From Gammaproteobacteria bacterium (GTDB lineage: Bacteria; Pseudomonadota; Gammaproteobacteria; Pseudomonadales; Azotimanducaceae_A), in assembly GCA_028819775.1 (NCBI GenBank), contig JAPPKV010000331.1, positions 1 through 25,284 on the forward strand: DNA of 25,284 nt, given 5' to 3'. The translations under genes were made by a program, and so were the position numbers. Of this stretch, positions 1-22,578 are shown piece after piece; within the stretch, counting starts at the first letter, position 1, and the number at the start of each line of letters is the position of its first letter. A model generated the notes under the pieces. That model was not told where the DNA came from. It saw only the letters and a program-made list of their open reading frames with translations, and ran no database searches.

Positions 1-72
1 CTAGCCCAGAAGACCGTCACCAAGTCAAAGGCGCTGCTCAGAACAGCGGCCAGGCAAGGCGGATGGTCAAGG

Positions 73-1554
73 ATGATCGAGCTAGTCGCGAAACACGGGC
101 CACCGGCACTGGGTTCGTTCTTCTATCTGATGGTTGCTCTCGTCGGAATTACATACAGCCTTGGCTATTATGATCGTTTCGAGGACGTCGACATCCTTGG
201 GTTGTTCGACACTCCCGACTTCCTGCTAAGCGCGTTTGGCAACCTATGGGCGCTATTGTTCGGTATTGTCGCGCCATTTGTTGCCCTAGCCCTACTAACA
301 CTGGTCTATCTAACTTCCAGCACCGTACGCGCGAATCTCCACGCAAGGGACAGGCGAAAGTCCCTCCTGCTGCAGCTCACAATCTGGCTTCCCCCCATCG
401 CCATACTTGCCCCCCTGGGATTCTCCTTCCTGCTCGGTAAGGCCAACAGTCTTACGGACGTAAGTGATCCGCAGTACGTCCAGTACGCCACACGAGGCGC
501 CCCTGGCAACCCAGATGCTCGAAACCCCAATCTAGCCCACACTATCCTGCTCGGAACGACAAGCGACTTCCACATCTTCTACGAGTGCGCGGCGGTAAAT
601 CGTACCGACGAGGAAGGGAACAAAACGGGCTCCGTCACCGCACGAGACCAATCCGCAAACGATGTGGACGTGGACTGCACCAAGGATGGCCTCGCATTCG
701 TCGTACCCACCGCAAACGTGGCCTCCGTTACGTTCCAGCCGATTGGCAAGTCAACTCGACCTCCTGAACCGACAGAGAATCCCATAGCCAACTCGTTGTC
801 GGAACTTCACGCCACGCTCAAAACACTCGTTCAGGACGTTAACACAGAGACGGAATCGAAGAGACGCCTCACAGTTCGCCTTCCCGAGCTAGAGAGCGCG
901 ATCGCTGACCTACAAGAATCGTTAGTAGATCATCCCCCGGTCACCATAGTTGACACAACCGAAATCCTGGCTCTTACATCGGAAATCAAGAAGCAGATCG
1001 ACGCGTCTCTCAAAAACAATGGTCCGGTTGTTTCTGACCCCCCCAATGGTTCGATGAAACAGAGCCTAATGGGCATCGAAGAAAAAATCGACGAACTCAG
1101 CCTCAAGATCGAATCGCTTCGCGGAACTCCCGCCCGCTGCGACGAGCGACTGAAAATGATCGACGTTGTAGGTCCCTTCCCTGAGGGGCAGTCCGCACCT
1201 GACGCAAACACAAGGAGGCGCATAAACGAGGACATTGACAGGGCTACGAAGCGACTCTATGACCGGCGAACGCCCCAGTATCTCATGCTCGTTGGGCGAG
1301 TCGACACGAAACGACCGCAACAGGAGGGGATCGAATACTCTGGGTCCGCCGACACGTTGGCCTTGAGCCGTGCCAAATGGACCCTAGATAGAGTCAAGAC
1401 GAGGGCGTCCGAGCTAGGCCGAGCGGTTGACGACGAGTTGTTTAGTCGCGCTGCGATCCTCAGCGCGGGACTAATGAGTGTGCGGGATGACTCGATAGGC
1501 CAGGAGGACGCGGAGGAACGCGTCGTCGAGATTTGGGTCTGCGGAACCTTCTAG
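73..1554 (+). CDS. Inner-membrane protein with periplasmic coiled coil and OmpA-like C-terminal domain
   Basis: This 493-residue protein has no family I can name with confidence. Three hydrophobic segments are visible at about residues 11-33, 52-84 and 97-122. A soluble region follows, and then a charged, heptad-rich stretch at about 235-350 that is likely coiled coil. The last ~135 residues resemble an OmpA/MotB peptidoglycan-binding fold: LMLVGRVDTKRP near 405, LALSRAKWTLDRV near 430, and a terminal ERVVEIWVC that corresponds to the usual NRRVEI strand. A role in anchoring an inner-membrane assembly to the cell wall is inference. The ATG at 73 has a purine-rich GGCGGA nine bases upstream. 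However, the same frame stays open back to base 1, so the true start may lie outside the window. Base composition is low in GC (26 of 60 in 961-1020). The gene converges on the crotonase gene. Confidence 0.7.
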   Translation: MIELVAKHGPPALGSFFYLMVALVGITYSLGYYDRFEDVDILGLFDTPDFLLSAFGNLWALLFGIVAPFVALALLTLVYLTSSTVRANLHARDRRKSLLLQLTIWLPPIAILAPLGFSFLLGKANSLTDVSDPQYVQYATRGAPGNPDARNPNLAHTILLGTTSDFHIFYECAAVNRTDEEGNKTGSVTARDQSANDVDVDCTKDGLAFVVPTANVASVTFQPIGKSTRPPEPTENPIANSLSELHATLKTLVQDVNTETESKRRLTVRLPELESAIADLQESLVDHPPVTIVDTTEILALTSEIKKQIDASLKNNGPVVSDPPNGSMKQSLMGIEEKIDELSLKIESLRGTPARCDERLKMIDVVGPFPEGQSAPDANTRRRINEDIDRATKRLYDRRTPQYLMLVGRVDTKRPQQEGIEYSGSADTLALSRAKWTLDRVKTRASELGRAVDDELFSRAAILSAGLMSVRDDSIGQEDAEERVVEIWVCGTF

Positions 1555-4759: not shown

Positions 4760-5824
4760 TCACCTATCCAGAGACCGCGCCGGTCGCAGGCGCCGAGTCG
4801 CAGGTGCCGCGAGTTTGACCGACTTCCGCACGCAGCGGCGTAGGAAGCGCCGCGTCGAGCGCCACCCCCTGCGCACGTTCCTGGCAACCACCCAGACAGC
4901 GATTGGCACGAGGGTCTTTTGCGGGCGTTCGCCTCTCGGCGACGGGAAGGTCTCAAGAACCGCTGTGGCGTGGCGCACGATTTCCTTTTCGATCTCATAG
5001 AGCAGGTAGTTGTCAGGGGGGGTAGAAGAACTAGACGGCGCAACGATCGCTACCAGCTCCGGAAAATCCGTATAGCGGGCCATTTCATAGTGCGCCGCAA
5101 ACCCGGACCAGTACTCCGCGTCTCGTTCGTCAGACAGGAAGAAGACGTCATCACCTTCATGGATGCCGAGTTTCCCCAAGCGGCGACGGATGTTGCCCGG
5201 ACTCGTCAACCACCTCATCGGGCCCCATAGGCGATCACCGCGTCGAATGTGTACCGCCGCAAATCCCGTCGGCCAGCGGTTCCGGAGCTCCTCAATGACG
5301 GGACCTGCGCGGTGAAGCACGGTCGCGGACGGACGCAACTGTAAGGCCGGCGTGTTCGTCAAAGGCACTTCCTTTGAGAACACTTCGTGGCGAACCTGAC
5401 GGACAACCAACTCCGCACCCTCCTTCGCAGACAAGCGACCTCTCGGTGGGACGGTACGCGTCTTGAGGCCCCCCGCTGGTATTTCGCGTACGAAAGGCAA
5501 CGGGTGTGTTCGCCCGTCGTTGCCGACCAGTCGGCTCGCGTCAAGGTCGAAATAGGTATCCCAAGACCAGTCCCTGGCGATGCCGAAGTTGTGCTTAGAC
5601 TCAAGTCGAAGTGGCGGCAGCACGGCAAGGCGTCCTAGGGCATGAGCTTCGGCAAGCAGGCACCGGAGGTTGCTCAACTGGTGATCGATGCCAGCCGCCA
5701 CCGGACGCACTTCGTCGTAATGCAAGTAGCGCGCGATCGGAGTCGATCGAGCCGACGATGCCTGCGACCGGGCGGCAGTGTCGTCTCCCAATGTCACGAA
5801 CGCCTCATCGAGGCACGTCACCAC
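4760..5824 (-). CDS. Fucosyltransferase-like protein (HIRRGD motif)
   Basis: The product has 354 residues. Its key sign is FAAVHIRRGDRLWGP at about residues 186-200. The HxRRGD motif binds GDP-fucose in several fucosyltransferase families (GT11, GT23, GT65, GT68). DVFFLSDERDAEYW near 230 resembles the later nucleotide-binding segment (strand, then S/T-D-E) of the same fold. Gmd and fcl lie directly downstream, so transfer of L-fucose to a glycan is the best inference; the acceptor is unknown. The last ~50 residues are rich in Arg, with a short hydrophobic patch (TLVPIAVWVVARNV), and might associate with the membrane. The GTG start at 5824 overlaps the end of the sulfotransferase gene by 20 bases, which suggests translational coupling. 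No alternative upstream start is convincing, and the first in-frame ATG is far too late. Confidence 0.68.
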   Translation of the reverse strand: MVTCLDEAFVTLGDDTAARSQASSARSTPIARYLHYDEVRPVAAGIDHQLSNLRCLLAEAHALGRLAVLPPLRLESKHNFGIARDWSWDTYFDLDASRLVGNDGRTHPLPFVREIPAGGLKTRTVPPRGRLSAKEGAELVVRQVRHEVFSKEVPLTNTPALQLRPSATVLHRAGPVIEELRNRWPTGFAAVHIRRGDRLWGPMRWLTSPGNIRRRLGKLGIHEGDDVFFLSDERDAEYWSGFAAHYEMARYTDFPELVAIVAPSSSSTPPDNYLLYEIEKEIVRHATAVLETFPSPRGERPQKTLVPIAVWVVARNVRRGWRSTRRFLRRCVRKSVKLAAPATRRLRPARSLDR

Positions 5825-6716
5825 GGACTAGGCCTCGCGAGCCGACTTTCCGAAGCAGTTCAAAGTCCCGACGATAGCGCCGATGCAAGATCGCCAAGCT
5901 GTCGTCATCCACAGGCACGCAAACCGTCCCCGCCCTTCGCTTGTTCAGGTGAGGCAATGCAGTGTACGGAACGCCAAGCCGTGTCAGGACCCACCGCCAG
6001 TTCTGCTCTAGGTTTTCGTACGAACCAACGTAATCCGGTAGACATCCATCCACTTCGATGTGTCTGTATTGCGAGAGCCAGTGTCTTTCGGCAAATGCGT
6101 CTGAGCCAAAAGGCGTCTCAAGCCATCGACAATACTCAGCGAACGACATTCCCTTGTACAATCCATAGTAACGCCTTTCAACATTCCACTCAGGAGCCAG
6201 AGGTCCAGGATCTAGCTTATCGTCAAAGAACGACCGCGCTCGCTCGAAAGGACTCCGAACGAAAGCGAATCTGAAGAATTCCTTCGTTTCAGGGTACGCC
6301 GAAAACAGCTCTTGAATTGTCCTTTGCTCGACTCGTATTGCATCAGGGTCGGCGGCCACTAGGGCCTGAATGATGCTCCGAGAAGCAACCTTCGGGTTAC
6401 AAATCCAGACAAACTTGTGCCGATGCGACACGATCTTCTCCGCCCGTTTATCCGGCCTTTGACGAGCATTTCGCGCCATCGCCAATGCGACCTTCGACTC
6501 ACCGCATCTGACGGCATTGACGAATTGACCTGCGACTTGGCGGCGCTCCCTTGTGGACGAGATCGATAGCCGGCCTAAGAGAAAGGGCAGTTCGACTGAG
6601 TTTGACAAACGTCTTGCCAACTCGTAAGCCGCCGTGTCTCCCAGCACCCAACGAAGGAGACGCAAGACGCGCCGCCGTAGGTCGCGCCTATGTCGGTCAG
6701 CTTGAGGCCGGGACAT
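5805..6716 (-). CDS. Carbohydrate sulfotransferase family protein
   Basis: The protein has 303 residues. KFVWICNPKVASRSIIQAL at about 100-120 matches the 5'-phosphosulfate-binding loop of PAPS-dependent sulfotransferases (family 2, HNK-1/chondroitin type, where the motif is PKxAsTS). FRFAFVRSPFERARSFFDDK at about 148-168 matches the 3'-phosphate-binding motif (FVRxPxxRxxS). Together these support transfer of sulfate from PAPS to a sugar. The acceptor is probably the glycan made by neighbouring genes, possibly on fucose. No PAPS synthesis gene is in the window. The ATG at 6716 is the first plausible start. The gene overlaps the fucosyltransferase-like gene by 20 bases. GC content is visibly lower than in the flanks (27 of 60 in 6121-6180), hinting at transfer. 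Confidence 0.82.
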   Translation of the reverse strand: MSRPQADRHRRDLRRRVLRLLRWVLGDTAAYELARRLSNSVELPFLLGRLSISSTRERRQVAGQFVNAVRCGESKVALAMARNARQRPDKRAEKIVSHRHKFVWICNPKVASRSIIQALVAADPDAIRVEQRTIQELFSAYPETKEFFRFAFVRSPFERARSFFDDKLDPGPLAPEWNVERRYYGLYKGMSFAEYCRWLETPFGSDAFAERHWLSQYRHIEVDGCLPDYVGSYENLEQNWRWVLTRLGVPYTALPHLNKRRAGTVCVPVDDDSLAILHRRYRRDFELLRKVGSRGLVRGDVPR

Positions 6717-14038: not shown

Positions 14039-14782
14039 CTAGTAGTCCCGGAGCACTTCGTCGATCGACCCGTGTGCCTTGACCTTGCCAGCATCGAGGA
14101 GCACGCCCTTCGTGCAGACGCGTTCAAGCAAGCTGGCGTTCTGCGAAGCGAGCACCAGAATGCCTGCCCGCTCGACAAATTCCTCAAGCCGTTTTTGTGC
14201 CTTCTCGACGAAGTGCCGGTCGCCCACACTCAACCACTCATCCATGAGAAGGATTTCGGGCTCGAAACTGGTACAGACCGCGAATCCCAATCGAAACCGC
14301 ATCCCTGCCGAATAGGTATGCGCTGGCATCGCCAGGTAGTCGCCGAGTTCGGTGAACTCCGCGATTTCCGCTGTGCGTTCCTGGACCTCCTTGGGCGAGA
14401 GCCCCAGCAGGAGTCCGCGCGTCATGATGTTCTCGTACCCCGTGGCGTCGTCGTCGATTCCTAGCGAGACATTGAGCAAAGATGCGGTTCGCCCTCGCCG
14501 CCAAACCCGGCCACGGACGGGTTCGTAGACACCGGCCAACACCCGCAGGAGCGTCGTCTTGCCCGCGCCGTTGTGGCCGACGACACCTACCCGGTCACCG
14601 TGCTCCAACGCAATGCTGACATCGTCCAGCGCTCTTACCGTTAGGCGGTTGCCTGCATCCCGACCGACGCGACCGCCGGTGCCGTGGTAGATGAACCGGT
14701 TCTTGATCGAACGCATGTTTGCGTTGTAGATCGGGAAATCGACCGTGACGGATTCCACTTGGATGCTTGCATGAGTGTTCAT
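14039..14782 (-). CDS. wzt: Polysaccharide export ABC transporter ATP-binding protein
   Basis: The 247-residue ATPase powers export of a lipid-linked polysaccharide across the inner membrane with Wzm. The N-terminal VDFPIYNANMRSIKNRF is typical of Wzt/KpsT/TagH-type ATPases. Walker A is GHNGAGKT at 69-76, the signature segment is YSAGMRFRLGFAV near 158-170, and Walker B is ILLMDEWLSVGD near 178-189. The H-loop reads VLASQNASLL, with Gln at about residue 214 where the switch His is expected; this is unusual. No extra C-terminal carbohydrate-binding domain is present, so export need not depend on a recognised chain cap. The ATG at 14782 overlaps the wzm stop (ATGA), indicating coupling. The same frame continues open upstream through wzm but that part is not coding. 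Confidence 0.93.
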   Translation of the reverse strand: MNTHASIQVESVTVDFPIYNANMRSIKNRFIYHGTGGRVGRDAGNRLTVRALDDVSIALEHGDRVGVVGHNGAGKTTLLRVLAGVYEPVRGRVWRRGRTASLLNVSLGIDDDATGYENIMTRGLLLGLSPKEVQERTAEIAEFTELGDYLAMPAHTYSAGMRFRLGFAVCTSFEPEILLMDEWLSVGDRHFVEKAQKRLEEFVERAGILVLASQNASLLERVCTKGVLLDAGKVKAHGSIDEVLRDY

Positions 14783-15636
14783 ACCCAGTAAGCGATTCGC
14801 CAGCGGTAACGGACGTAGATCACGAACGTGGCCGCCCCCCCAACAAGCGTATAACCAATCATCGCCAGCCACGAAACCGCACTTGGCAATTCGCCGAGTA
14901 ACGGCGCCCGAACCACTTCGAGGACGTGGAAGAACGGGTTGAGATTCATGGGTAGCACGGCCCGATTCGGCAGCAACTCCGGCATCCAGATGATGGGCGT
15001 CACAAAGAAAGCAATCCGCACGATACTTGCGACGATCGGCGGAATGTCGCGAAACCGCGCCGCGAACGCACCGAGGAGCATGCCAACCCAGACTCCGTTC
15101 ACGCAGAGGAGCACCATCCCCGGTATGGCCAACAGACCCGTCCATCCCGGCCACACCATGAAGATGATCGCCACGACCACGAAGATCACTGCGTTGTGGA
15201 AGAAGATAATGAGGTTGCGCCAGACCACCCGGTAGACATGCACAGACAACGGTAGCCGAGCCTGCTGGATGATGTTGCTGGCGGCTACGTACGCGGTGCA
15301 GCCATCCGTGATCAGGCCGTTGACCAGTGTCCAGATGACAAAGCCGAGGGTTAGGTAGGGGACGTAGTTCGTCGCCTCCACCTTGAACAGGCCACCGTAA
15401 AGGGTACCCAGTACGGCAACCAGCATTCCCATGCTGATGGTGATCCAGAAAGGTCCCAGCGTCGAGCGTCGGTAGCGCCGGCGTATGTCCTGCCAGCCTA
15501 GGCGACCCCAGAGGTGGGTAACCCGGGCACCCTCCACGAGGTCGAAAAGCGCGAGGGCGGATTGCGAGGTCGGTTGGTTCAGCACCGGCTCGGACACGAC
15601 TGTTCTCTGCTCCCACGGCGTCATGACGAACGACAC
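14779..15636 (-). CDS. wzm: Polysaccharide export ABC transporter permease
   Basis: The 285-residue protein is an ABC-2 type inner-membrane permease. After a ~45-residue cytoplasmic N-terminus comes LWGRLGWQDIRRRYRRSTLG, the family's conserved amphipathic stretch. About six hydrophobic segments follow (for example FWITISMGMLVAVLGTLY and GLLAIPGMVLLCVNGVWVGM). The conserved ARFRDIPPIVASIVRIAFF and MNLNPFFHVLEVVRAPLL also match Wzm/KpsM/TagG. It pairs with wzt through an ATGA overlap. The start may be GTG at 15636 or ATG at 15624; neither has a strong ribosome site. It is the first gene of the minus-strand polysaccharide set and diverges from the small gene before xseB. Confidence 0.94.
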   Translation of the reverse strand: MSFVMTPWEQRTVVSEPVLNQPTSQSALALFDLVEGARVTHLWGRLGWQDIRRRYRRSTLGPFWITISMGMLVAVLGTLYGGLFKVEATNYVPYLTLGFVIWTLVNGLITDGCTAYVAASNIIQQARLPLSVHVYRVVWRNLIIFFHNAVIFVVVAIIFMVWPGWTGLLAIPGMVLLCVNGVWVGMLLGAFAARFRDIPPIVASIVRIAFFVTPIIWMPELLPNRAVLPMNLNPFFHVLEVVRAPLLGELPSAVSWLAMIGYTLVGGAATFVIYVRYRWRIAYWV

Positions 15637-15679
15637 CCGTTAGCACCGGCTTGCTACGGGCGGGCCGATCCTTCGCAGG

Positions 15680-16096: not shown

Positions 16097-16354
16097 ATGG
16101 CAGACGCTGCAAGTCAACACAATTCGGAGGTCCAGGATCCCATCGATTTTGAGGCGGCACTTGCCGAACTCGAGGAATTGGTGGGTAGGATGGAAGCAGG
16201 ATCGTTGAGTCTCGAAGAATCCCTTGCCGCTTTCGAGCGTGGGATGAAGCTCACCCGCGAGTGTCAGTCCGCGTTGCGGTCGGCGGAACTGCGGATCAAG
16301 GCATTGACCCAGGAAGGTGATGAACTGGATCTATCGTCGTCTGGAGACGAATAG
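16097..16354 (+). CDS. xseB: Exodeoxyribonuclease VII small subunit
   Basis: The 85-residue protein is the small subunit that decorates the XseA catalytic subunit of exonuclease VII, which degrades single-stranded DNA. The family core is clear: FEAALAELEELVGRMEAG, SLSLEESLAAFERGMKL and CQSALRSAELRIKAL, forming two helices, with an acidic tail. Length is typical. GGGGGC lies just before the ATG at 16097. In many gammaproteobacteria ispA and dxs follow directly; here a UbiA-family gene starts 45 bases later. XseA is not in the window. Confidence 0.95.
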   Translation: MADAASQHNSEVQDPIDFEAALAELEELVGRMEAGSLSLEESLAAFERGMKLTRECQSALRSAELRIKALTQEGDELDLSSSGDE

Positions 16355-16399: not shown

Positions 16400-17353
16400 G
16401 TGGTGTCACCAACCGAGGACACAGACAAGCGCCAGGTCGAAGACCCAGCTGCGCCCCCCGTAGTCGATGTCCACGGCACGCCGGTGGTCACGGAATACCT
16501 CCGTGCGTTGCGCCCACACCAATGGGTCAAGAACGCCTTGGTGTTGGTGGCTCCGGTCGCGGCACACGCTGTGGATCCGGTCTCCTACCTTTGGGCGGCG
16601 GGTGCGTTCGTGGTCATGTCGCTGGTCGCCTCGGCTGGCTATGTACTCAACGACATCGTCGACGTCGATCACGATCGCGAACACCCTTCGAAGCGGCAAC
16701 GGCCATTGGCAGCGGGGAAGGTCCGCGTTGTCCCCATGGCAGCAGTGGGCTCGACGCTGGCAGCCGTGGGTGTCGCTGCATCGTTCTTGATGTCGGTTGG
16801 CATGGGAGCGTGCGTAGTTCTCTACCTTGTGCTGGCGGTCGCCTATTCGCTACGGCTAAAGCGCGCAATCATCATTGATGTGATCGTGCTGGCATCGCTC
16901 TACGTGATTCGGGTGGTGGCCGGAGGTGTCGCGGTGGCGATACCGGTGTCGCCTTGGCTGCTGGCGTTCTCCCTGTTCACATTCGTGTCGCTCGCAATCG
17001 TCAAGCGGCGGACGGAACTGGCCAACGTGGCAGAGGGCCGTCAAGAGGCCGTGTTGGGCCGAGGCTACATCGCGAAGGATGCGAGTGTGGTGACAATGTT
17101 GGGGGCAGCCAGCACTATCGGCGGCGTGATCGTGCTCGCGCTGTATGTCCAAAGCCCCGAGGTGGCGATGCGCTACGATCGACCGGAACTCCTTAGGCTG
17201 GTATGCCCTGTGCTCCTCTACTGGCTCGGTCGGTTGCTCCTGCTCGCCAACCGGGGTGCCGTGGACGACGATCCGGTGATGTTCGCAGTTCGCGACAGGA
17301 CTAGCTGGCTGGCCGGTTTGCTTGCGGTCGCAATCGTGGCCGTCGCGATTTGA
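16400..17353 (+). CDS. UbiA-family phosphoribosyl-polyprenyl-phosphate synthase
   Basis: The 317-residue membrane protein belongs to the UbiA prenyltransferase superfamily, in the subgroup that joins polyprenyl phosphate and PRPP (Rv3806c-type). LRPHQWVKNALVLVAPVAA opens the domain at about 35-53. The first Asp-rich motif is NDIVDVDHDREH at 84-95, followed by KRQRPLAAG. The second region, YSLRLKRAIIIDVIVL with LYVIRVVAGG, lies at about 150-178. About eight to nine hydrophobic helices are present. The RPHQWVKN start and the DprE1/DprE2-like genes immediately downstream point to 5-phosphoribosyl-polyprenyl phosphate rather than a quinone. The start is GTG at 16400, with a second GTG as the next codon. 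GGGA is 11 bases upstream. The separate phosphatase of the mycobacterial pathway is not seen here. Confidence 0.88.
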   Translation: MVSPTEDTDKRQVEDPAAPPVVDVHGTPVVTEYLRALRPHQWVKNALVLVAPVAAHAVDPVSYLWAAGAFVVMSLVASAGYVLNDIVDVDHDREHPSKRQRPLAAGKVRVVPMAAVGSTLAAVGVAASFLMSVGMGACVVLYLVLAVAYSLRLKRAIIIDVIVLASLYVIRVVAGGVAVAIPVSPWLLAFSLFTFVSLAIVKRRTELANVAEGRQEAVLGRGYIAKDASVVTMLGAASTIGGVIVLALYVQSPEVAMRYDRPELLRLVCPVLLYWLGRLLLLANRGAVDDDPVMFAVRDRTSWLAGLLAVAIVAVAI

Positions 17354-17405
17354 CCGCCCACGTCGCCAGCGTCTGTTTGCACCTGGCCATGGCGCACTGG
17401 CGGGC

Positions 17406-18743
17406 ATGATGCGGGCGACGCACCTATCGGGCTGGGGGCGTTATCCGATTCGCGAATGTCGGGTCGCCACTCTGCGCCGGGAGGAGCAGTTGGCGGAGTG
17501 GTCGCAAACCAAGACGTTGATTGCGCGCGGGAATGGTCGATCCTACGGCGATGCGGCGCTCAACCCGGAAATGACGCTGTCGATGCTCGCGATGGATCGA
17601 TTACTCGCCTTCGATGCGAGTTGCGGAGTATTGAGCTGCGAGGCCGGTGTGCTGCTCGCCGACTTGTTGCGAGTCTATGCGCCCCAGGGGTGGTTTCCTC
17701 CGGTCGTGCCGGGGACGGCGGACGTAACGGTTGGCGGCATGATCGCCGCTGACGTCCATGGCAAGAACCATCACCGGGATGGTTCGTTCGGTGACCACGT
17801 CGAGTCGTTCCGCTTGGCCGGGGGCAACGGCGATGTCCTGACCTGCAGCCGCGAGGAGAACCCGGATCTCTTCCGAGCCACCGTCGGCGGCATGGGATTG
17901 ACGGGGGTCGTTCTGTCGGCGCGTTTTCGAATGTGCAGGATCGAGTCTGAGCATGTCCGAACCGAGACCTTGGGCACGCCGGACCTTGACGCGACGATGG
18001 AGACGCTCGCGGCATCGAATGACTGGCGCTACAGCGTCGCTTGGCTCGATGGAAGTGCAAAAGGCGGAAACTTGGGGCGCGGGCTGGTCTCACGTGGCGA
18101 TTTCGCGACACGCGACGACCTCTCAGGCCAGTCTTCAGCTTACCGTTCTCGTGCTCCGGTAAGTCGGCAACTACCGACACCGGCGCTGCTGTCCGGCGCA
18201 CTCAATCCTGGGTCGGTTCGTCTGTTCGATGCGCTCTACAACCGGGTAGGTCGCTTTCGAAAGGGTCCGCGACTGGTTCACCATACGTCGTTCTTCTTTC
18301 CCTTGGACCGCCTTCAGCAGTGGAACCGACTGTACGGACGTCGCGGATTCGTCCAGTACCAGTGCGTTCTGCCCGTTTCGCAGAGTTCGCACGGCCTCCG
18401 GGCCATTCTGGAGCGCGTGGCGGCGTCGGACCACATCGCCTACCTTGCCGTTCTCAAGCTGCTTGGACCGCAAGGCGAAGGGATGCTGTCGTTCCCGCTG
18501 TCGGGGTACACGCTCGCGCTGGACTTCCCGATGCGCCCCGGTACGCTGGAACTCTTGGATTCGCTTGACGACATCACCACGGCGCACGGCGGGCGCGTCT
18601 ACCTGGCGAAGGATGCGCGCTGCCGACCGGACCACGTGCAGGAGTCCTACGCCGACCTCCCATCTTTTATAGACGTACGCCAAGGTGCGACTAGCGGCAC
18701 CCGTGAGTTCTCATCGGTCATGTCGCGGCGGCTGGGGCTATGA
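17406..18743 (+). CDS. dprE1: Decaprenylphosphoryl-ribose 2'-oxidase-like FAD enzyme
   Basis: The 445-residue protein matches DprE1, the FAD oxidase that converts polyprenyl-phosphoryl-ribose to the 2'-keto intermediate. The FAD-binding segment ARGNGRSYGDAALN lies near 40-53, GGMIAADVHGKNHHRDGSFG near 111-130, and TVGGMGLTG near 160. The C-terminal part VYLAKDARC carries Lys at 402, which aligns with the catalytic Lys418 of the M. tuberculosis enzyme. At the position of its Cys387, the target of benzothiazinones, this protein has Ala371 (GYTLALDFP). The spacing between the two residues is identical (31). I chose ATG 17406, with ATG 17409 next; the frame is open further upstream into the UbiA gene but without a likely start. 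The stop overlaps the next gene in ATGA. Confidence 0.92.
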   Translation: MMRATHLSGWGRYPIRECRVATLRREEQLAEWSQTKTLIARGNGRSYGDAALNPEMTLSMLAMDRLLAFDASCGVLSCEAGVLLADLLRVYAPQGWFPPVVPGTADVTVGGMIAADVHGKNHHRDGSFGDHVESFRLAGGNGDVLTCSREENPDLFRATVGGMGLTGVVLSARFRMCRIESEHVRTETLGTPDLDATMETLAASNDWRYSVAWLDGSAKGGNLGRGLVSRGDFATRDDLSGQSSAYRSRAPVSRQLPTPALLSGALNPGSVRLFDALYNRVGRFRKGPRLVHHTSFFFPLDRLQQWNRLYGRRGFVQYQCVLPVSQSSHGLRAILERVAASDHIAYLAVLKLLGPQGEGMLSFPLSGYTLALDFPMRPGTLELLDSLDDITTAHGGRVYLAKDARCRPDHVQESYADLPSFIDVRQGATSGTREFSSVMSRRLGL

Positions 18744-19492
18744 GTCGAAGCAGTCGTCGCAATTCCGGGACGGCCCTGGTAGTGGGGGCGACCGGAGACA
18801 TTGGTCGGGCCATCGCACGCAGGCTGGGTCGCGACGGTTGGGAACTTCAGCTCGCCGCTCGTGATCCGGCGCAACTCGAAGCGGAAGCACAAGACCTCCG
18901 CCTCCGCGGCATCTCGGTATCAGCGCACGAGTGCGACCTACTGAACGAGGATGGTGGCGTCTCGCTGATCGACGCGCTGCCAGCCACGCCCGATGTCGCC
19001 GTGTGTACCGTCGGAGTACTGGGCGATCAGTCCGATGCGGAGACAGACTGGCGAGCCGCCGAACGCGTCATGCGGACGAACTACCTCGGCCCGGCGCTGT
19101 TGATGGGCGCATTGGCGAACCGATTCGAGCAGCGGGGGCACGGCACACTCGTCGGAATAGGCTCGATCGCCGGCGAACGCGGCAGGCGCTCGAACTACGC
19201 CTACGGATCCGCCAAAAGCGGGTTCACTACCTTCCTCTCGGGCCTTCGCAGCCGACTCTTGCGCTCCGGCGTCCATGTGGTCACGGTCAAGCCCGGGTAC
19301 GTTCGAACGAGGATGACGGACCACTTGGAGCTGCCGGCATTGCTCACGGCCGAGCCGGAGGATGTTGCCGAAGCGATCGCACGGGCGATCAGAAAGCGGC
19401 GCGACGTCGTGTTCGTCGGCCGCTTGTGGCGACCCGTGGCATTCGTCGTGCGTGCGATGCCCGAGTCGATCTTCAAGCGAATATCGCTGTAG
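18740..19492 (+). CDS. dprE2: Decaprenylphosphoryl-2-keto-pentose reductase-like SDR
   Basis: The 250-residue classical short-chain dehydrogenase most likely reduces the keto intermediate made by the preceding enzyme, yielding polyprenyl-phospho-D-arabinose. GATGDIG at 16-22 binds the cofactor. The catalytic triad residues Ser142, Tyr155 and Lys159 are in GIGSIAGERGRRSNYAYGSAK order. VVTVKPGYVRTRMTDHL follows, and the C-terminus ends PESIFKRISL, as in DprE2-like proteins. The ATG lies inside the stop of the preceding gene (ATGA), so the pair is translationally coupled. Length agrees with the family. SDRs are diverse, and the specific assignment rests mainly on the DprE1 partner and UbiA neighbour. 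Confidence 0.88.
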   Translation: MSRSSRRNSGTALVVGATGDIGRAIARRLGRDGWELQLAARDPAQLEAEAQDLRLRGISVSAHECDLLNEDGGVSLIDALPATPDVAVCTVGVLGDQSDAETDWRAAERVMRTNYLGPALLMGALANRFEQRGHGTLVGIGSIAGERGRRSNYAYGSAKSGFTTFLSGLRSRLLRSGVHVVTVKPGYVRTRMTDHLELPALLTAEPEDVAEAIARAIRKRRDVVFVGRLWRPVAFVVRAMPESIFKRISL

Positions 19493-19505
19493 GGGCAACG
19501 AGGGG

Positions 19506-21062
19506 ATGAACAACAGTCCAACGCACCCCCACAACCGTTTGCATGCGCTCAGGCGGGTAGATCCGGTAATCCTCGGCATCTTGGTCTTGGCTTTGGTTGC
19601 CGGCCTGCTCGTAGTGATTCGTACCTGGGAGTTTGGGATCGGATTGAGCCCGGATTCGGTTCACTACGTGTCGATGGCCCGAGCGCTGGGGACGGATGAA
19701 GGCCCGCATCTACGCCCCACGTGGCCACCTTTGTTTGTGCTGCTCCTGGCGGCGCCGCGGGTAGTTGGTGTCGACCCTATCGACGCAGCCGCGGTTCTCA
19801 ATCCGTCGATCCTGGTTTGCATCTGCCTCGTCTCCGGTTGTTGGTTCTATCGCCGGACGAATTCGGGGCTCGTAAGCGTCGTTGTGACGGCTGCGCTGGC
19901 GTTTTCGATCCCGTTGACACGGGTCTCGAGTTCCGTGTGGACGGAACCGTTGTTTGTGCTGCTCACCGTCTGTTCGCTCGCGCTGCTCGACAGCCACCTC
20001 AGGAACGACTCCCTCAAAGTCCTGATGCTCGCCGCGCTGTTCGCAGCGTTCGCGTGTCTCACCCGTTACGCCGGTATCGCGCTGTTGGCGAGTACGGTGC
20101 TGATCTTGTTGAGCAAGCCGCAGGTGACGCTGCGGAAGAGAGTTGTCCAAGCGCTCTCCTACTCGGTAATCGCGGCGTTGCCGGTGTGCCTCTGGTTGCT
20201 GCGGAACCACCTCCTGTCGGAGACGTTTGTCGGCGGTAGAACGGCGGGGATCTGGTCGTTTGCCGACAACGCCGAGCGCGCCGTCCTGACTCTTGGTGCA
20301 TGGGCGTTGCCTTGGGGGAGGCGGGATCAGGGTCTGGAGCTGCTGATCCCCGGGGTCCCATTGTTGGCCGTGGTGGGGTTCGCTTTGGCTTGGGTATGGT
20401 CGTCGTCACGAAGTCGCGGTGTTCGAGAGACGATCTCGTGCTTGAAGCTGTCCGATCCATTCGCCCGGGTCCTGGCCGTTTATGCAATGGTCTATGTCGC
20501 GTTCATCCTTACGGTGTCTACGGCTATTCGCATCGACCCGATCAACGACCGGCTTCTTGTGCCCTGCTTCGTGCCGTTGGCCCTGCTCGCCGGATTCGCG
20601 GTGGAAAGGTTGATCGCGATGTCGAAACGCGATCACGGTGAGCGCTTTGGCGTCGCGTTTGCCATCGCGGTCGTTATGTTTGCGGCGTCGCACGTGGCAG
20701 CCTACATCCCTGAGCTGCGGTTCGCGGCATACAAGGGGCACGGCTACGCCTCCCGGACATGGGAAACGTCGGCGTCGATTTCATGGATACGGCGTACGGA
20801 CGCGCAGCGGTTGCTGACGAACCGGTGGGATGCTCTCCATCTGCTCGTTCCTGAAGTTGCCGTCGAGTCGCTGCCTCGGAACGAGGCGGAGCTAGCCGCC
20901 ATCGTGTCGTCTATTGGCGAACGACGTGTGGTCTGGTTCCACGGCACGAGTTATCCCTACGACCTGACAGAGCTGTCGTCGGATCTGGGCCTGGGGAAGG
21001 TTGTGGAGTTCGACGACGGTGTCGTCTTCGAGGTTCGCCAGCCACGTGGAACGACACGATAG
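19506..21062 (+). CDS. GT-C membrane glycosyltransferase (ArnT/PMT-like)
   Basis: The 518-residue protein has about ten hydrophobic segments beginning at ~19-38. The first periplasmic loop carries GLSPDSVHYVSMARALG with Asp50, followed by LRPTWPPLFVLLLA. This is the typical GT-C pattern (an acidic residue in loop 1, then a P-x-x-P/F segment) of enzymes using polyprenyl-phosphate sugars. The C-terminal ~100 residues are soluble and probably periplasmic. Because the preceding three genes should make polyprenyl-phospho-arabinose, this protein is the natural candidate arabinosyltransferase; that is inference, and the acceptor is unknown. The ATG at 19506 has GGGG runs just upstream. An earlier in-frame start would lie inside the SDR gene and is unlikely. 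It starts 13 bases after the reductase and ends 10 bases before the next gene. Confidence 0.8.
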   Translation: MNNSPTHPHNRLHALRRVDPVILGILVLALVAGLLVVIRTWEFGIGLSPDSVHYVSMARALGTDEGPHLRPTWPPLFVLLLAAPRVVGVDPIDAAAVLNPSILVCICLVSGCWFYRRTNSGLVSVVVTAALAFSIPLTRVSSSVWTEPLFVLLTVCSLALLDSHLRNDSLKVLMLAALFAAFACLTRYAGIALLASTVLILLSKPQVTLRKRVVQALSYSVIAALPVCLWLLRNHLLSETFVGGRTAGIWSFADNAERAVLTLGAWALPWGRRDQGLELLIPGVPLLAVVGFALAWVWSSSRSRGVRETISCLKLSDPFARVLAVYAMVYVAFILTVSTAIRIDPINDRLLVPCFVPLALLAGFAVERLIAMSKRDHGERFGVAFAIAVVMFAASHVAAYIPELRFAAYKGHGYASRTWETSASISWIRRTDAQRLLTNRWDALHLLVPEVAVESLPRNEAELAAIVSSIGERRVVWFHGTSYPYDLTELSSDLGLGKVVEFDDGVVFEVRQPRGTTR

Positions 21063-21072
21063 TCGGACTGCT

Positions 21073-22578
21073 ATGGGACGTCGTTGGACACGGGTGTTGA
21101 GGCAAGCGCGACGGATCCGCGATCTCACGACAGCCGTGATGTTCGTCGGTTGGTTCGGCAACAGGCTAAAGGGGTGGTTGCGGCAGACGCTGTTGGGCCT
21201 GAACAAGGTGAGAGCGACAACGGCTAGGAGAACGGTCGCGCTCGGCATCGAGGTTGCTGTCGCCGGCAAGTTGTCGCGGGCCGTATTCCGGGACTTCGTG
21301 GCACCTCCGCGTCGCCATGAGTTCAATCATGTCGACGTATTGCTGGCTGACACGGAGGCAGACGTGAGCGGTCAGCACCTGCCGGCAGTCGTACTGTCAG
21401 AGCATCTGCAACTCTCCGTCCCCGCCTTCGATCCTGCATCGTTCAACCCGATAGGGTGGGAACGGGACGTCAATGACCGGATCGGCGCCCTCGGGTCGCC
21501 ACGACTGTTGCCGACGGGAGTCACCGCCGACCTCACGGTGCCATTAGCCGATCTAGAGAAAGCCCGGCGGTGTCACCACCTAATCGACGTTCAAGGTTTT
21601 CATCAGAGCACCGTGGAACGGGCCGGGGCACTAGTACGCCTGGCCGCGAGTGGCATTCCAGTTCATCTGGCCGATCGTGGTGACGAACTCGAACCACTGT
21701 TGGGAGCCGAGTTGCATCGTCTGATGAAGTCGGACATTCATGGCAAGGGGGCGACCGAGCGGGAGCTACTGAGCATCGCGCTTAGACGAGCCGCGTTCCG
21801 CGATCACACCCTTCGAACCCGAGCCCGGCAAGTGAGTCGAATCGCCGGGCTTGACCTTGCACCAGAACCGACGGTGTCCGTCCTGCTCGCGACGAAGCGG
21901 CCCACTCACCTCGACCAAGCATTGCAGAACATTGCAAGGCAGACCTACAAACCGCTGGAGGTGGTAATTGCGCTCCACGGCGACGGATTCGAAGACGCTG
22001 CCGTGGACCGCGCCATCGCCCAACTAAACATGCCCGTGACCGTCCGGCGCGTTGATGGATCGGCACCGTTGGGCCTGGTGTTGCGCATCGCCACCGATGC
22101 CGCGAACGGGGACTTCGTTACCAAGATGGACGATGATGACGTCTACGACGCGTTGCACATCGGCGACTTGATGATGGCGTACGAGTTCTCCGGGGCGGAA
22201 CTCGTCGGCAAATACCATGAAGTCAACTACCTCGCCGATTCGGACCAAACCGTGGAGGTCCAGCGCGGCTTGGGGGAAAGGTACGCCTTGCATGTCTCCG
22301 GGGCGGCCTTGCTGATGGCACGCCAAGACCTGTACCGGTTCGGGGGTTGGCAGCGAGTTCCGGGGCGCGAGGACAGCGCTTTGGCGGACGACGTGCTCCG
22401 AGGCGGTGGCACGGTCTATCGGACCCATGGCGCCGGTTTCGTTTGCATCCGCCATGGCCAGCACCACGGACACACCTGGGAGGCATCGGACGACTACCAG
22501 ACCGATCGTGCCGACGGTGTCCACGACGGGTGGTGTCCTTGGCTTGCTGGTATGCCCGATGCCCGGTTGCTTCTCTAG
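21073..22578 (+). CDS. Glycosyltransferase: GT-B-like half fused to GT2 domain
   Basis: The 501-residue protein is a paralogue of the enzymes at 6955 and 8561. Residues ~86-259 hold the shared module: VDVLLADTEADV, LSVPAFDP, FNPIGWERDVNDRIGALG, CHHLIDVQGFH, ERAGALVRLAASGIPVHLAD and RELLSIALRRAAFRDHTLR. Residues ~265-480 are GT2, with VSVLLATKRPTHLDQAL, VVIALHGDGFE, KMDDDDVYD near 350, REDSALADDVL and YRTHGAGFVCIRHG. A short N-terminal hydrophobic/basic stretch (TTAVMFVGWFGNRLKGW) may attach it to the membrane. The ATG at 21073 lies 10 bases after the GT-C stop with only a weak GGA ribosome site; translational coupling is likely. An earlier in-frame ATG at 21001 would overlap the GT-C gene. 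Confidence 0.84.
   Translation: MGRRWTRVLRQARRIRDLTTAVMFVGWFGNRLKGWLRQTLLGLNKVRATTARRTVALGIEVAVAGKLSRAVFRDFVAPPRRHEFNHVDVLLADTEADVSGQHLPAVVLSEHLQLSVPAFDPASFNPIGWERDVNDRIGALGSPRLLPTGVTADLTVPLADLEKARRCHHLIDVQGFHQSTVERAGALVRLAASGIPVHLADRGDELEPLLGAELHRLMKSDIHGKGATERELLSIALRRAAFRDHTLRTRARQVSRIAGLDLAPEPTVSVLLATKRPTHLDQALQNIARQTYKPLEVVIALHGDGFEDAAVDRAIAQLNMPVTVRRVDGSAPLGLVLRIATDAANGDFVTKMDDDDVYDALHIGDLMMAYEFSGAELVGKYHEVNYLADSDQTVEVQRGLGERYALHVSGAALLMARQDLYRFGGWQRVPGREDSALADDVLRGGGTVYRTHGAGFVCIRHGQHHGHTWEASDDYQTDRADGVHDGWCPWLAGMPDARLLL

What the first reader, a model, noticed from the sequence alone, without database searches (positions are those of the whole stretch)
16400..21062. Complete-looking polyprenyl-phospho-D-arabinose module plus a candidate arabinosyltransferase in a proteobacterial locus
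Seen: a UbiA-type gene with RPHQWVKN and NDxxDxxxD motifs, a DprE1-like FAD enzyme, a DprE2-like SDR (ATGA-coupled) and a GT-C protein with an Asp loop-1 motif, all in one tight plus-strand set. Known: in mycobacteria the first three types make decaprenyl-phospho-arabinose, used by GT-C arabinosyltransferases. Inferred: this bacterium makes a D-arabinose-containing surface glycan, and the 518-residue GT-C protein is the transferase. The phosphatase step is missing from the window.
Basis: partly seen in the sequence, partly recalled or inferred. Interest (0 to 1): 0.75.

Follow-up and report, generated by a model that had tools for sequence, protein, structure and literature searches.

The report
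Arabinose-donor gene set, phosphatase deleted
A gammaproteobacterium carries genes that look able to make and attach a lipid-carried form of the rare sugar D-arabinose, as tuberculosis bacteria do, but the first enzyme of the chain has lost its built-in phosphatase half through a clean deletion.

Summary
Window 16400-21062 (+) encodes a UbiA-fold enzyme closest to mycobacterial DPPRS (8j8j), DprE1-like and DprE2-like enzymes with key residues kept, and a 518-aa GT-C_A-fold protein. The kind of system is published: Kelly et al. 2024 (PMC11127046) describe widespread polyprenyl-phosphate-pentofuranose systems, with DprE1/E2 homologs where the sugar is arabinofuranose and a HAD phosphatase fused to the UbiA enzyme. 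New here: the UbiA gene is a shortened descendant of such a fusion. About 166 HAD codons are gone in frame, leaving the N-terminus and a decayed motif I (DVHGT for DVDGT). The window and five relatives form one HAD-less clade nested among fused ones. In the one HAD-less relative whose genome I searched for them, neither a HAD-PRP nor a PAP2 phosphatase was found. The GT-C reaches no curated family cut-off; it is linked to the module in relatives, and a different membrane protein sits in its slot in one. Best reading: und-P-D-Araf is made with a borrowed phosphatase and decorates an ABC-exported O-polysaccharide. Phosphatase and flippase are absent from the window, so 'complete' is too strong. 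A sister MAG has lost the donor module, so decay is a live rival.

The parts
16400..17353 (+). UbiA-fold polyprenyl-phosphate phosphoribosyltransferase (DPPRS/PPPRS type), 317 aa, HAD phosphatase domain deleted
16466..16480 (+). relic of HAD motif I (DVHGT, DVDGT in fused relatives); deletion junction just downstream at about 16487-16490
   Evidence: protein alignment, DNA comparison with L031
17406..18743 (+). DprE1-like FAD oxidase, about 445 aa (ORF opens at 17322)
   Evidence: NF053785 406 bits, under its cut-off of 500; DprE1 structures are the best solved relatives; motifs
18740..19492 (+). DprE2-like SDR reductase, 250 aa, ATGA overlap with the DprE1 gene
   Evidence: NF005489 (generic SDR) 309 over cut-off 267; NF053786 (DprE2) 189 under cut-off 250; 21gq chain C best solved relative
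19506..21062 (+). GT-C_A-fold membrane protein, 518 aa, candidate pentofuranosyltransferase
   Evidence: model pLDDT 86; PDB matches; invariant D50, E147, R349 in 30 sequences
21001..22578 (+). family-2 glycosyltransferase ORF (true start uncertain), probably the next gene of the set
   Evidence: PF00535 27.0 bits over cut-off 23.3; conserved in L031, not found in L007
22600..23523 (+). family-2 glycosyltransferase
   Evidence: PF00535 32.9 bits over cut-off 23.3; conserved in L007 and L031
14779..15636 (-). Wzm-like ABC exporter membrane subunit
   Evidence: PF01061 52.4 bits over 26.9
14039..14770 (-). Wzt-like ABC exporter ATPase
   Evidence: PF00005 71.4 bits over 25; NF050108 286 bits under cut-off 400 (on the longer ORF)

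Best explanation
The four genes make and use a polyprenyl-phospho-D-arabinofuranose donor. [quoted passage not shown] (2) The 5-phosphate, once removed by a HAD domain fused to this same protein, is now removed by a phosphatase encoded elsewhere. (3) DprE1 oxidises and DprE2 reduces C2, giving und-P-D-Araf. (4) An unlinked flippase turns the lipid to the periplasm. (5) The GT-C transfers Araf as a side chain to the O-polysaccharide that the neighbouring Wzm/Wzt exports. Shown here: gene identities, folds, conserved catalytic residues, the deletion and its clade. Inferred: all activities, the identity of phosphatase and flippase, and the acceptor.
For: Sequence and fold identities. Kelly et al. 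showed the UbiA-HAD chemistry and report DprE1/E2 homologs in Araf-containing systems (PMC11127046). Same gene order xseB-UbiA-DprE1-DprE2-GTC-GT2-GT2-pgpA-thiL in L031 and, without the first GT2 and with an extra gene before UbiA, in L007. dN/dS window-L007: DprE1 0.22, DprE2 0.40, GT-C 0.26. The phosphatase looks replaceable elsewhere too: ORF15 D18A kept some activity, and Rv3807c was the one gene of its set not found essential by knockdown (PMC5964476 passage).
Against: No phosphatase or flippase in the window. DprE1 and DprE2 equivalog cut-offs are missed (406 vs 500; 189 vs 250 bits). The GT-C fold does not tell arabinose from other lipid-phosphate sugars, and in G004, G005, G006 and G081 distant GT-C homologs lie far from UbiA. 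Relatives show damage: UbiA of L007 is frameshifted and MAG G166 has lost UbiA 3', DprE1, DprE2 and GT-C 5'. UbiA dN/dS window-L007 is higher (0.43 and 0.63 in two pieces) than window-L031 (0.25). The window's own genome is not held.
Confidence: 0.62

Rival explanations
1. Decaying module: loss of HAD was the first step of losing the pathway; the remaining genes are open only because the loss is recent, and they make little or no donor.
For: HAD deletion; frameshifted UbiA in L007; G166 carries the same HAD deletion and lacks the rest of the donor module; UbiA dN/dS 0.43-0.63 for window-L007.
Against: All four window frames are intact with catalytic residues kept; the six HAD-less UbiA proteins of the clade in the protein collection are 291-317 or 336 aa long at 83-100% identity (that search lists only proteins of 0.55-1.75 times the query length, so broken ones are under-represented); DprE1 and GT-C dN/dS 0.22 and 0.26. 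Damage in the two MAGs may be assembly error.
Confidence: 0.2
2. The donor is made, but this GT-C is not its transferase: it transfers another polyprenyl-phosphate sugar, and an unlinked enzyme uses the arabinose donor.
For: The fold fits many lipid-phosphate-sugar transferases; distant homologs are unlinked to UbiA in four of six genomes; L001 has an unrelated 488-aa membrane protein after DprE2 instead.
Against: Orthologs at 65% identity or more sit with the module in at least 8 of 14 cases; the gene follows DprE2 by 13 bases; distant homologs lie about 4 kb from UbiA in G079 and G122.
Confidence: 0.12
3. The UbiA product is used as ribofuranose (or another pentofuranose) and DprE1/E2 relatives here do some other epimerisation.
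For: Equivalog cut-offs for DprE1 and DprE2 are missed; two active-site positions near the drug-target cysteine differ from mycobacteria in all 39 aligned DprE1-like proteins.
Against: The catalytic His, Lys and Gln positions compared are kept in 39 of 39 and the SDR Ser-Tyr-Lys in 35 of 35; Kelly et al. report DprE1/E2 homologs in the Araf-containing systems.
Confidence: 0.05

Closest known systems
Extracytoplasmic three-component pentofuranose systems (Citrobacter youngae O1/O2 ORF12-15; Araf versions with DprE1/E2), PMC11127046
   Same: UbiA-type lipid-P-ribose synthase, epimerising enzymes, a GT-C, beside an ABC-exporter polysaccharide cluster
   Different: HAD PRP domain deleted here; no flippase gene in the window; GT-C not shown to be GT136
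Mycobacterial decaprenyl-phospho-arabinose pathway (Rv3806c, Rv3807c, DprE1, DprE2, Emb/Aft)
   Same: same three donor-making enzyme types, best solved relatives of each
   Different: no Rv3807c-type (PAP2) phosphatase found in 3 relatives' genomes; GT-C is far from Emb/Aft in sequence (no PDB match by profile); DprE1 lacks the benzothiazinone-target Cys
Pseudomonas pilin arabinosylation (TfpW and a PPPRS; TfpW known to me from recall and search listing)
   Same: DPPRS-type UbiA without a HAD domain, proposed und-P-Araf (stated in PMC11127046)
   Different: acceptor there is pilin; no pilin gene seen in this window
Azorhizobium noeCHOP Nod-factor arabinosylation (recalled, no call)
   Same: DPPRS/DprE1/DprE2-type genes in a proteobacterium
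   Different: different acceptor; not compared here

Membership tests
DPPRS/PPPRS (Rv3806c type) | NDxxDxxxD motif and R-x-x-E of the second cytoplasmic loop | tested here: met
   N84 D85 D88 D92 and R203, E206 invariant in 23 aligned sequences; the mapping of R203/E206 onto R366/E369 of ORF15 is mine, by spacing
DPPRS/PPPRS (Rv3806c type) | NCBIfam decaprenyl-phosphate phosphoribosyltransferase equivalog scores | tested here: not met
   NF008978 160 vs 207, NF008977 149 vs 234, NF008976 132 vs 474 bits; the over-cut-off family is NF006088, a UbiA family prenyltransferase, 361.5 vs 351
DPPRS/PPPRS (Rv3806c type) | fold | tested here: met
HAD-UbiA fused PPPRS (ORF15 type) | PRP (HAD) domain in the protein | tested here: not met
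   absent; relic and in-frame deletion
DprE1 | NCBIfam equivalog score NF053785 | tested here: not met
   406 vs cut-off 500 bits
DprE1 | FAD- and substrate-site residues of DprE1 | tested here: met
   DVHGKNHH, QYQ, K and AKD positions kept in window; His, Lys, Gln positions in 39 of 39; Asn and Cys positions differ (Thr in 39; Ala 35, Thr 4)
DprE2 | NCBIfam equivalog score NF053786 | tested here: not met
   189 vs cut-off 250 bits
DprE2 | SDR Ser-Tyr-Lys and similarity to DprE2 of 21gq | tested here: met
   S, Y and K in 35 of 35; E 5e-34, best of the solved proteins
GT-C_A glycosyltransferases | GT-C_A fold with an Asp after the first helix | tested here: met
GT136 | sequence similarity to ORF12 of C. 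youngae | not testable with these tools
   no ORF12 sequence and no GT136 model in the libraries used
Three-component pentofuranose system | flippase gene in the locus | tested here: not met
   crude hydropathy scan of ORFs of 60 aa or more found, with 3 or more membrane segments, only UbiA, GT-C, Wzm, PgpA and the 517-aa ORF at 1-1554; one SMR gene each in G001-G003, on other contigs than the module
D-arabinosylated glycan | D-Araf in the product | not testable with these tools
   needs chemistry

The most novel reading that the evidence does not exclude
With the phosphatase gone, the pathway keeps the 5-phosphate: DprE1/E2 act on und-P-ribose-5-phosphate and the GT-C puts D-arabinofuranose-5-phosphate on the glycan, a charged sugar decoration not known to me. 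Nothing here excludes it. The five DprE1 motifs I compared show no change shared by window and L007 and absent from fused relatives, which speaks mildly against.
Probability: 0.04. Interest if true: 0.75.

Novelty: new variant of a known kind. Interest (0 to 1): 0.42.

Why it matters
The pathway kind is known, but here one lineage has deleted the phosphatase half of the first enzyme while keeping the rest open, so it becomes testable whether the dephosphorylation step needs a dedicated enzyme at all (in mycobacteria Rv3807c was not essential by knockdown while ubiA, dprE1 and dprE2 were; PMC5964476). The GT-C reaches no curated family cut-off and is a candidate for a new arabinofuranosyltransferase family. 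The 39 DprE1-like proteins that I aligned all lack the cysteine that benzothiazinone drugs attack (residue role recalled).

Tried and rejected
Wzm-Wzt fusion: the 535-aa ORF at 14039-15646 looked like a fusion; it is two genes in different frames.

Relocated HAD: the HAD-PRP query hit 5 of 6 relatives' genomes, once each, in an open frame shared with UbiA (G002, G004, G005, G006; in G003 with the first part of UbiA at a contig end), and gave no match in G001, the HAD-less one; G001 is a MAG and may be incomplete. The PF12710 search matched 6 of 6 genomes and was too general to use. PAP2 (Rv3807c type): 0 of 3 genomes, while 11 of 14 controls ring. GtrA: 2 of 3 genomes, 3 matches in open frames of 379-410 aa, so probably synthase fusions (inference), not in the module's contigs.

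PgpA as the substitute phosphatase: adjacent here, but it also sits beside HAD-containing L031 and next to ThiL, so probably housekeeping. GT-C profile against the PDB sequences: five matches, E 0.14 or worse, none a glycosyltransferase.

HAD loss as unique to this clade: rejected. In 76 UbiA loci 60 are fused, 12 show no HAD with my profile, 1 has HAD in a separate frame, 3 are cut by a contig end; DprE1 and DprE2 are both found in 36 (short contigs cause misses). Of the 12, L006, L009 and L024 have UbiA frames long enough to hold a diverged HAD that my profile missed. Of 120 listed UbiA proteins 31 show no HAD, among them P0061 and P0066 in the same wider clade; a tree of 62 rows needs 8 changes of the label, at least 4 forced by supported branches.

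Full report
What is there. Window 16400-21062 (+) holds four tightly packed genes between xseB (16097-16354; read) and two family-2 glycosyltransferases, followed by pgpA and thiL on the other strand. The GT-C's 100%-identical database entry is from a MAG labelled Gammaproteobacteria. The nearest named genome loci, L007 and L031, are MAGs of Gammaproteobacteria isolates IRC1_bin_7 and RHO1_bin_53; I take IRC and RHO to be sponge hosts, which is recall. No whole genome is held for the window.

The missing phosphatase. In alignment A1 the window protein and five relatives (P0049-P0053) lack the N-terminal HAD domain that most of the other 17 rows carry. At DNA level the window keeps a stretch of the HAD gene start (16414-16479, 75% identical to L031), then jumps to the UbiA part; by length (483 vs 317 aa) 166 codons are gone, in frame. 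What remains of HAD motif I reads DVHGT. A tree of 62 UbiA domains puts the six in one clade (98/90) nested among fused relatives; P0061 and P0066 in the wider clade also lack HAD. P0049, from a different assembly, shows the same relic, and L114 aligns without a break across the junction, so an assembly error is unlikely. In the HAD-less genome G001 neither a HAD-PRP (no match; 5 of the 6 genomes searched have one) nor a PAP2 protein (0 of 3 genomes) was found. Precedent says that the step can be borrowed: ORF15 D18A kept some activity (PMC11127046 section 7), and Rv3807c was the exception in a knockdown set in which ubiA, dprE1 and dprE2 were essential (PMC5964476 passage).

Signs against a healthy pathway. 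L007 has a frameshift in UbiA. MAG G166 has lost the stretch from UbiA codon about 69 to GT-C codon about 196, with a 4-base overlap of the two matches at the joint, and has no DprE1 elsewhere (best match 29% identity over residues 71-206). UbiA dN/dS for window-L007 is 0.43 and 0.63 in two pieces, against 0.25 for window-L031; the other genes for window-L007 run 0.08-0.40. These are small counts, and ratios at low divergence run high. I give decay 0.2.

Context and acceptor. On the left, minus strand: Wzm/Wzt exporter, WecB, WecC, a 989-aa glycosyltransferase with two family-2 stretches, a sulfotransferase, Gmd and Fcl. This looks like an ABC-exported O-polysaccharide cluster, so an O-polysaccharide with ManNAcA, fucose and perhaps sulfate, decorated with D-Araf, is the natural guess; it is inference.

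What is known. Of PMC11127046 I read the abstract, sections 7, 8, 9, 11 and 12 and found passages; of PMC5964476 two passages; other papers only as search listings. In those seven listings I saw no title or abstract start on a HAD-deleted UbiA or on this module in sponge-associated bacteria. PMC11127046 says that its supplement shows further candidate systems in other species; supplements could not be opened here.

Verdict. Observation confirmed, interpretation partly supported, a new variant of a known kind.

Noticed in passing
window about 16750-19500 vs L007: UbiA 3' part, DprE1 and DprE2 are 95.6-99.6% identical to L007 in 250-base steps, while GT-C is 84-90%, Wzm/Wzt 86-94% and the stretch right of the GT-C 87-96%: a mosaic that suggests recent exchange of the donor-making core.
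   Followed up: partly
L114 (G166 contig C366): A natural deletion has removed most of UbiA, DprE1, DprE2 and the start of the GT-C, leaving both ends in place; it may also be an assembly error.
   Followed up: partly
L007 4008-5474: A 489-aa PMT_2-type membrane protein sits between xseB and UbiA, where the HAD domain lies in fused relatives; its relative follows DprE2 in L001.
   Followed up: partly
window 17406-18743 and 38 loci: None of 39 aligned DprE1-like proteins has the benzothiazinone-target cysteine (Ala 35, Thr 4); the Asn two residues before it is Thr in 39 of 39.
   Followed up: yes
window 1-1554 (+) and 4760-5824 (-): Two long ORFs without a Pfam or NCBIfam match at E 0.001 (517 aa with about 3 membrane segments; 354 aa).
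   Followed up: no
window 5805-6716 (-): Sulfotransferase (PF03567) in the polysaccharide cluster, suggesting a sulfated surface glycan.
   Followed up: no
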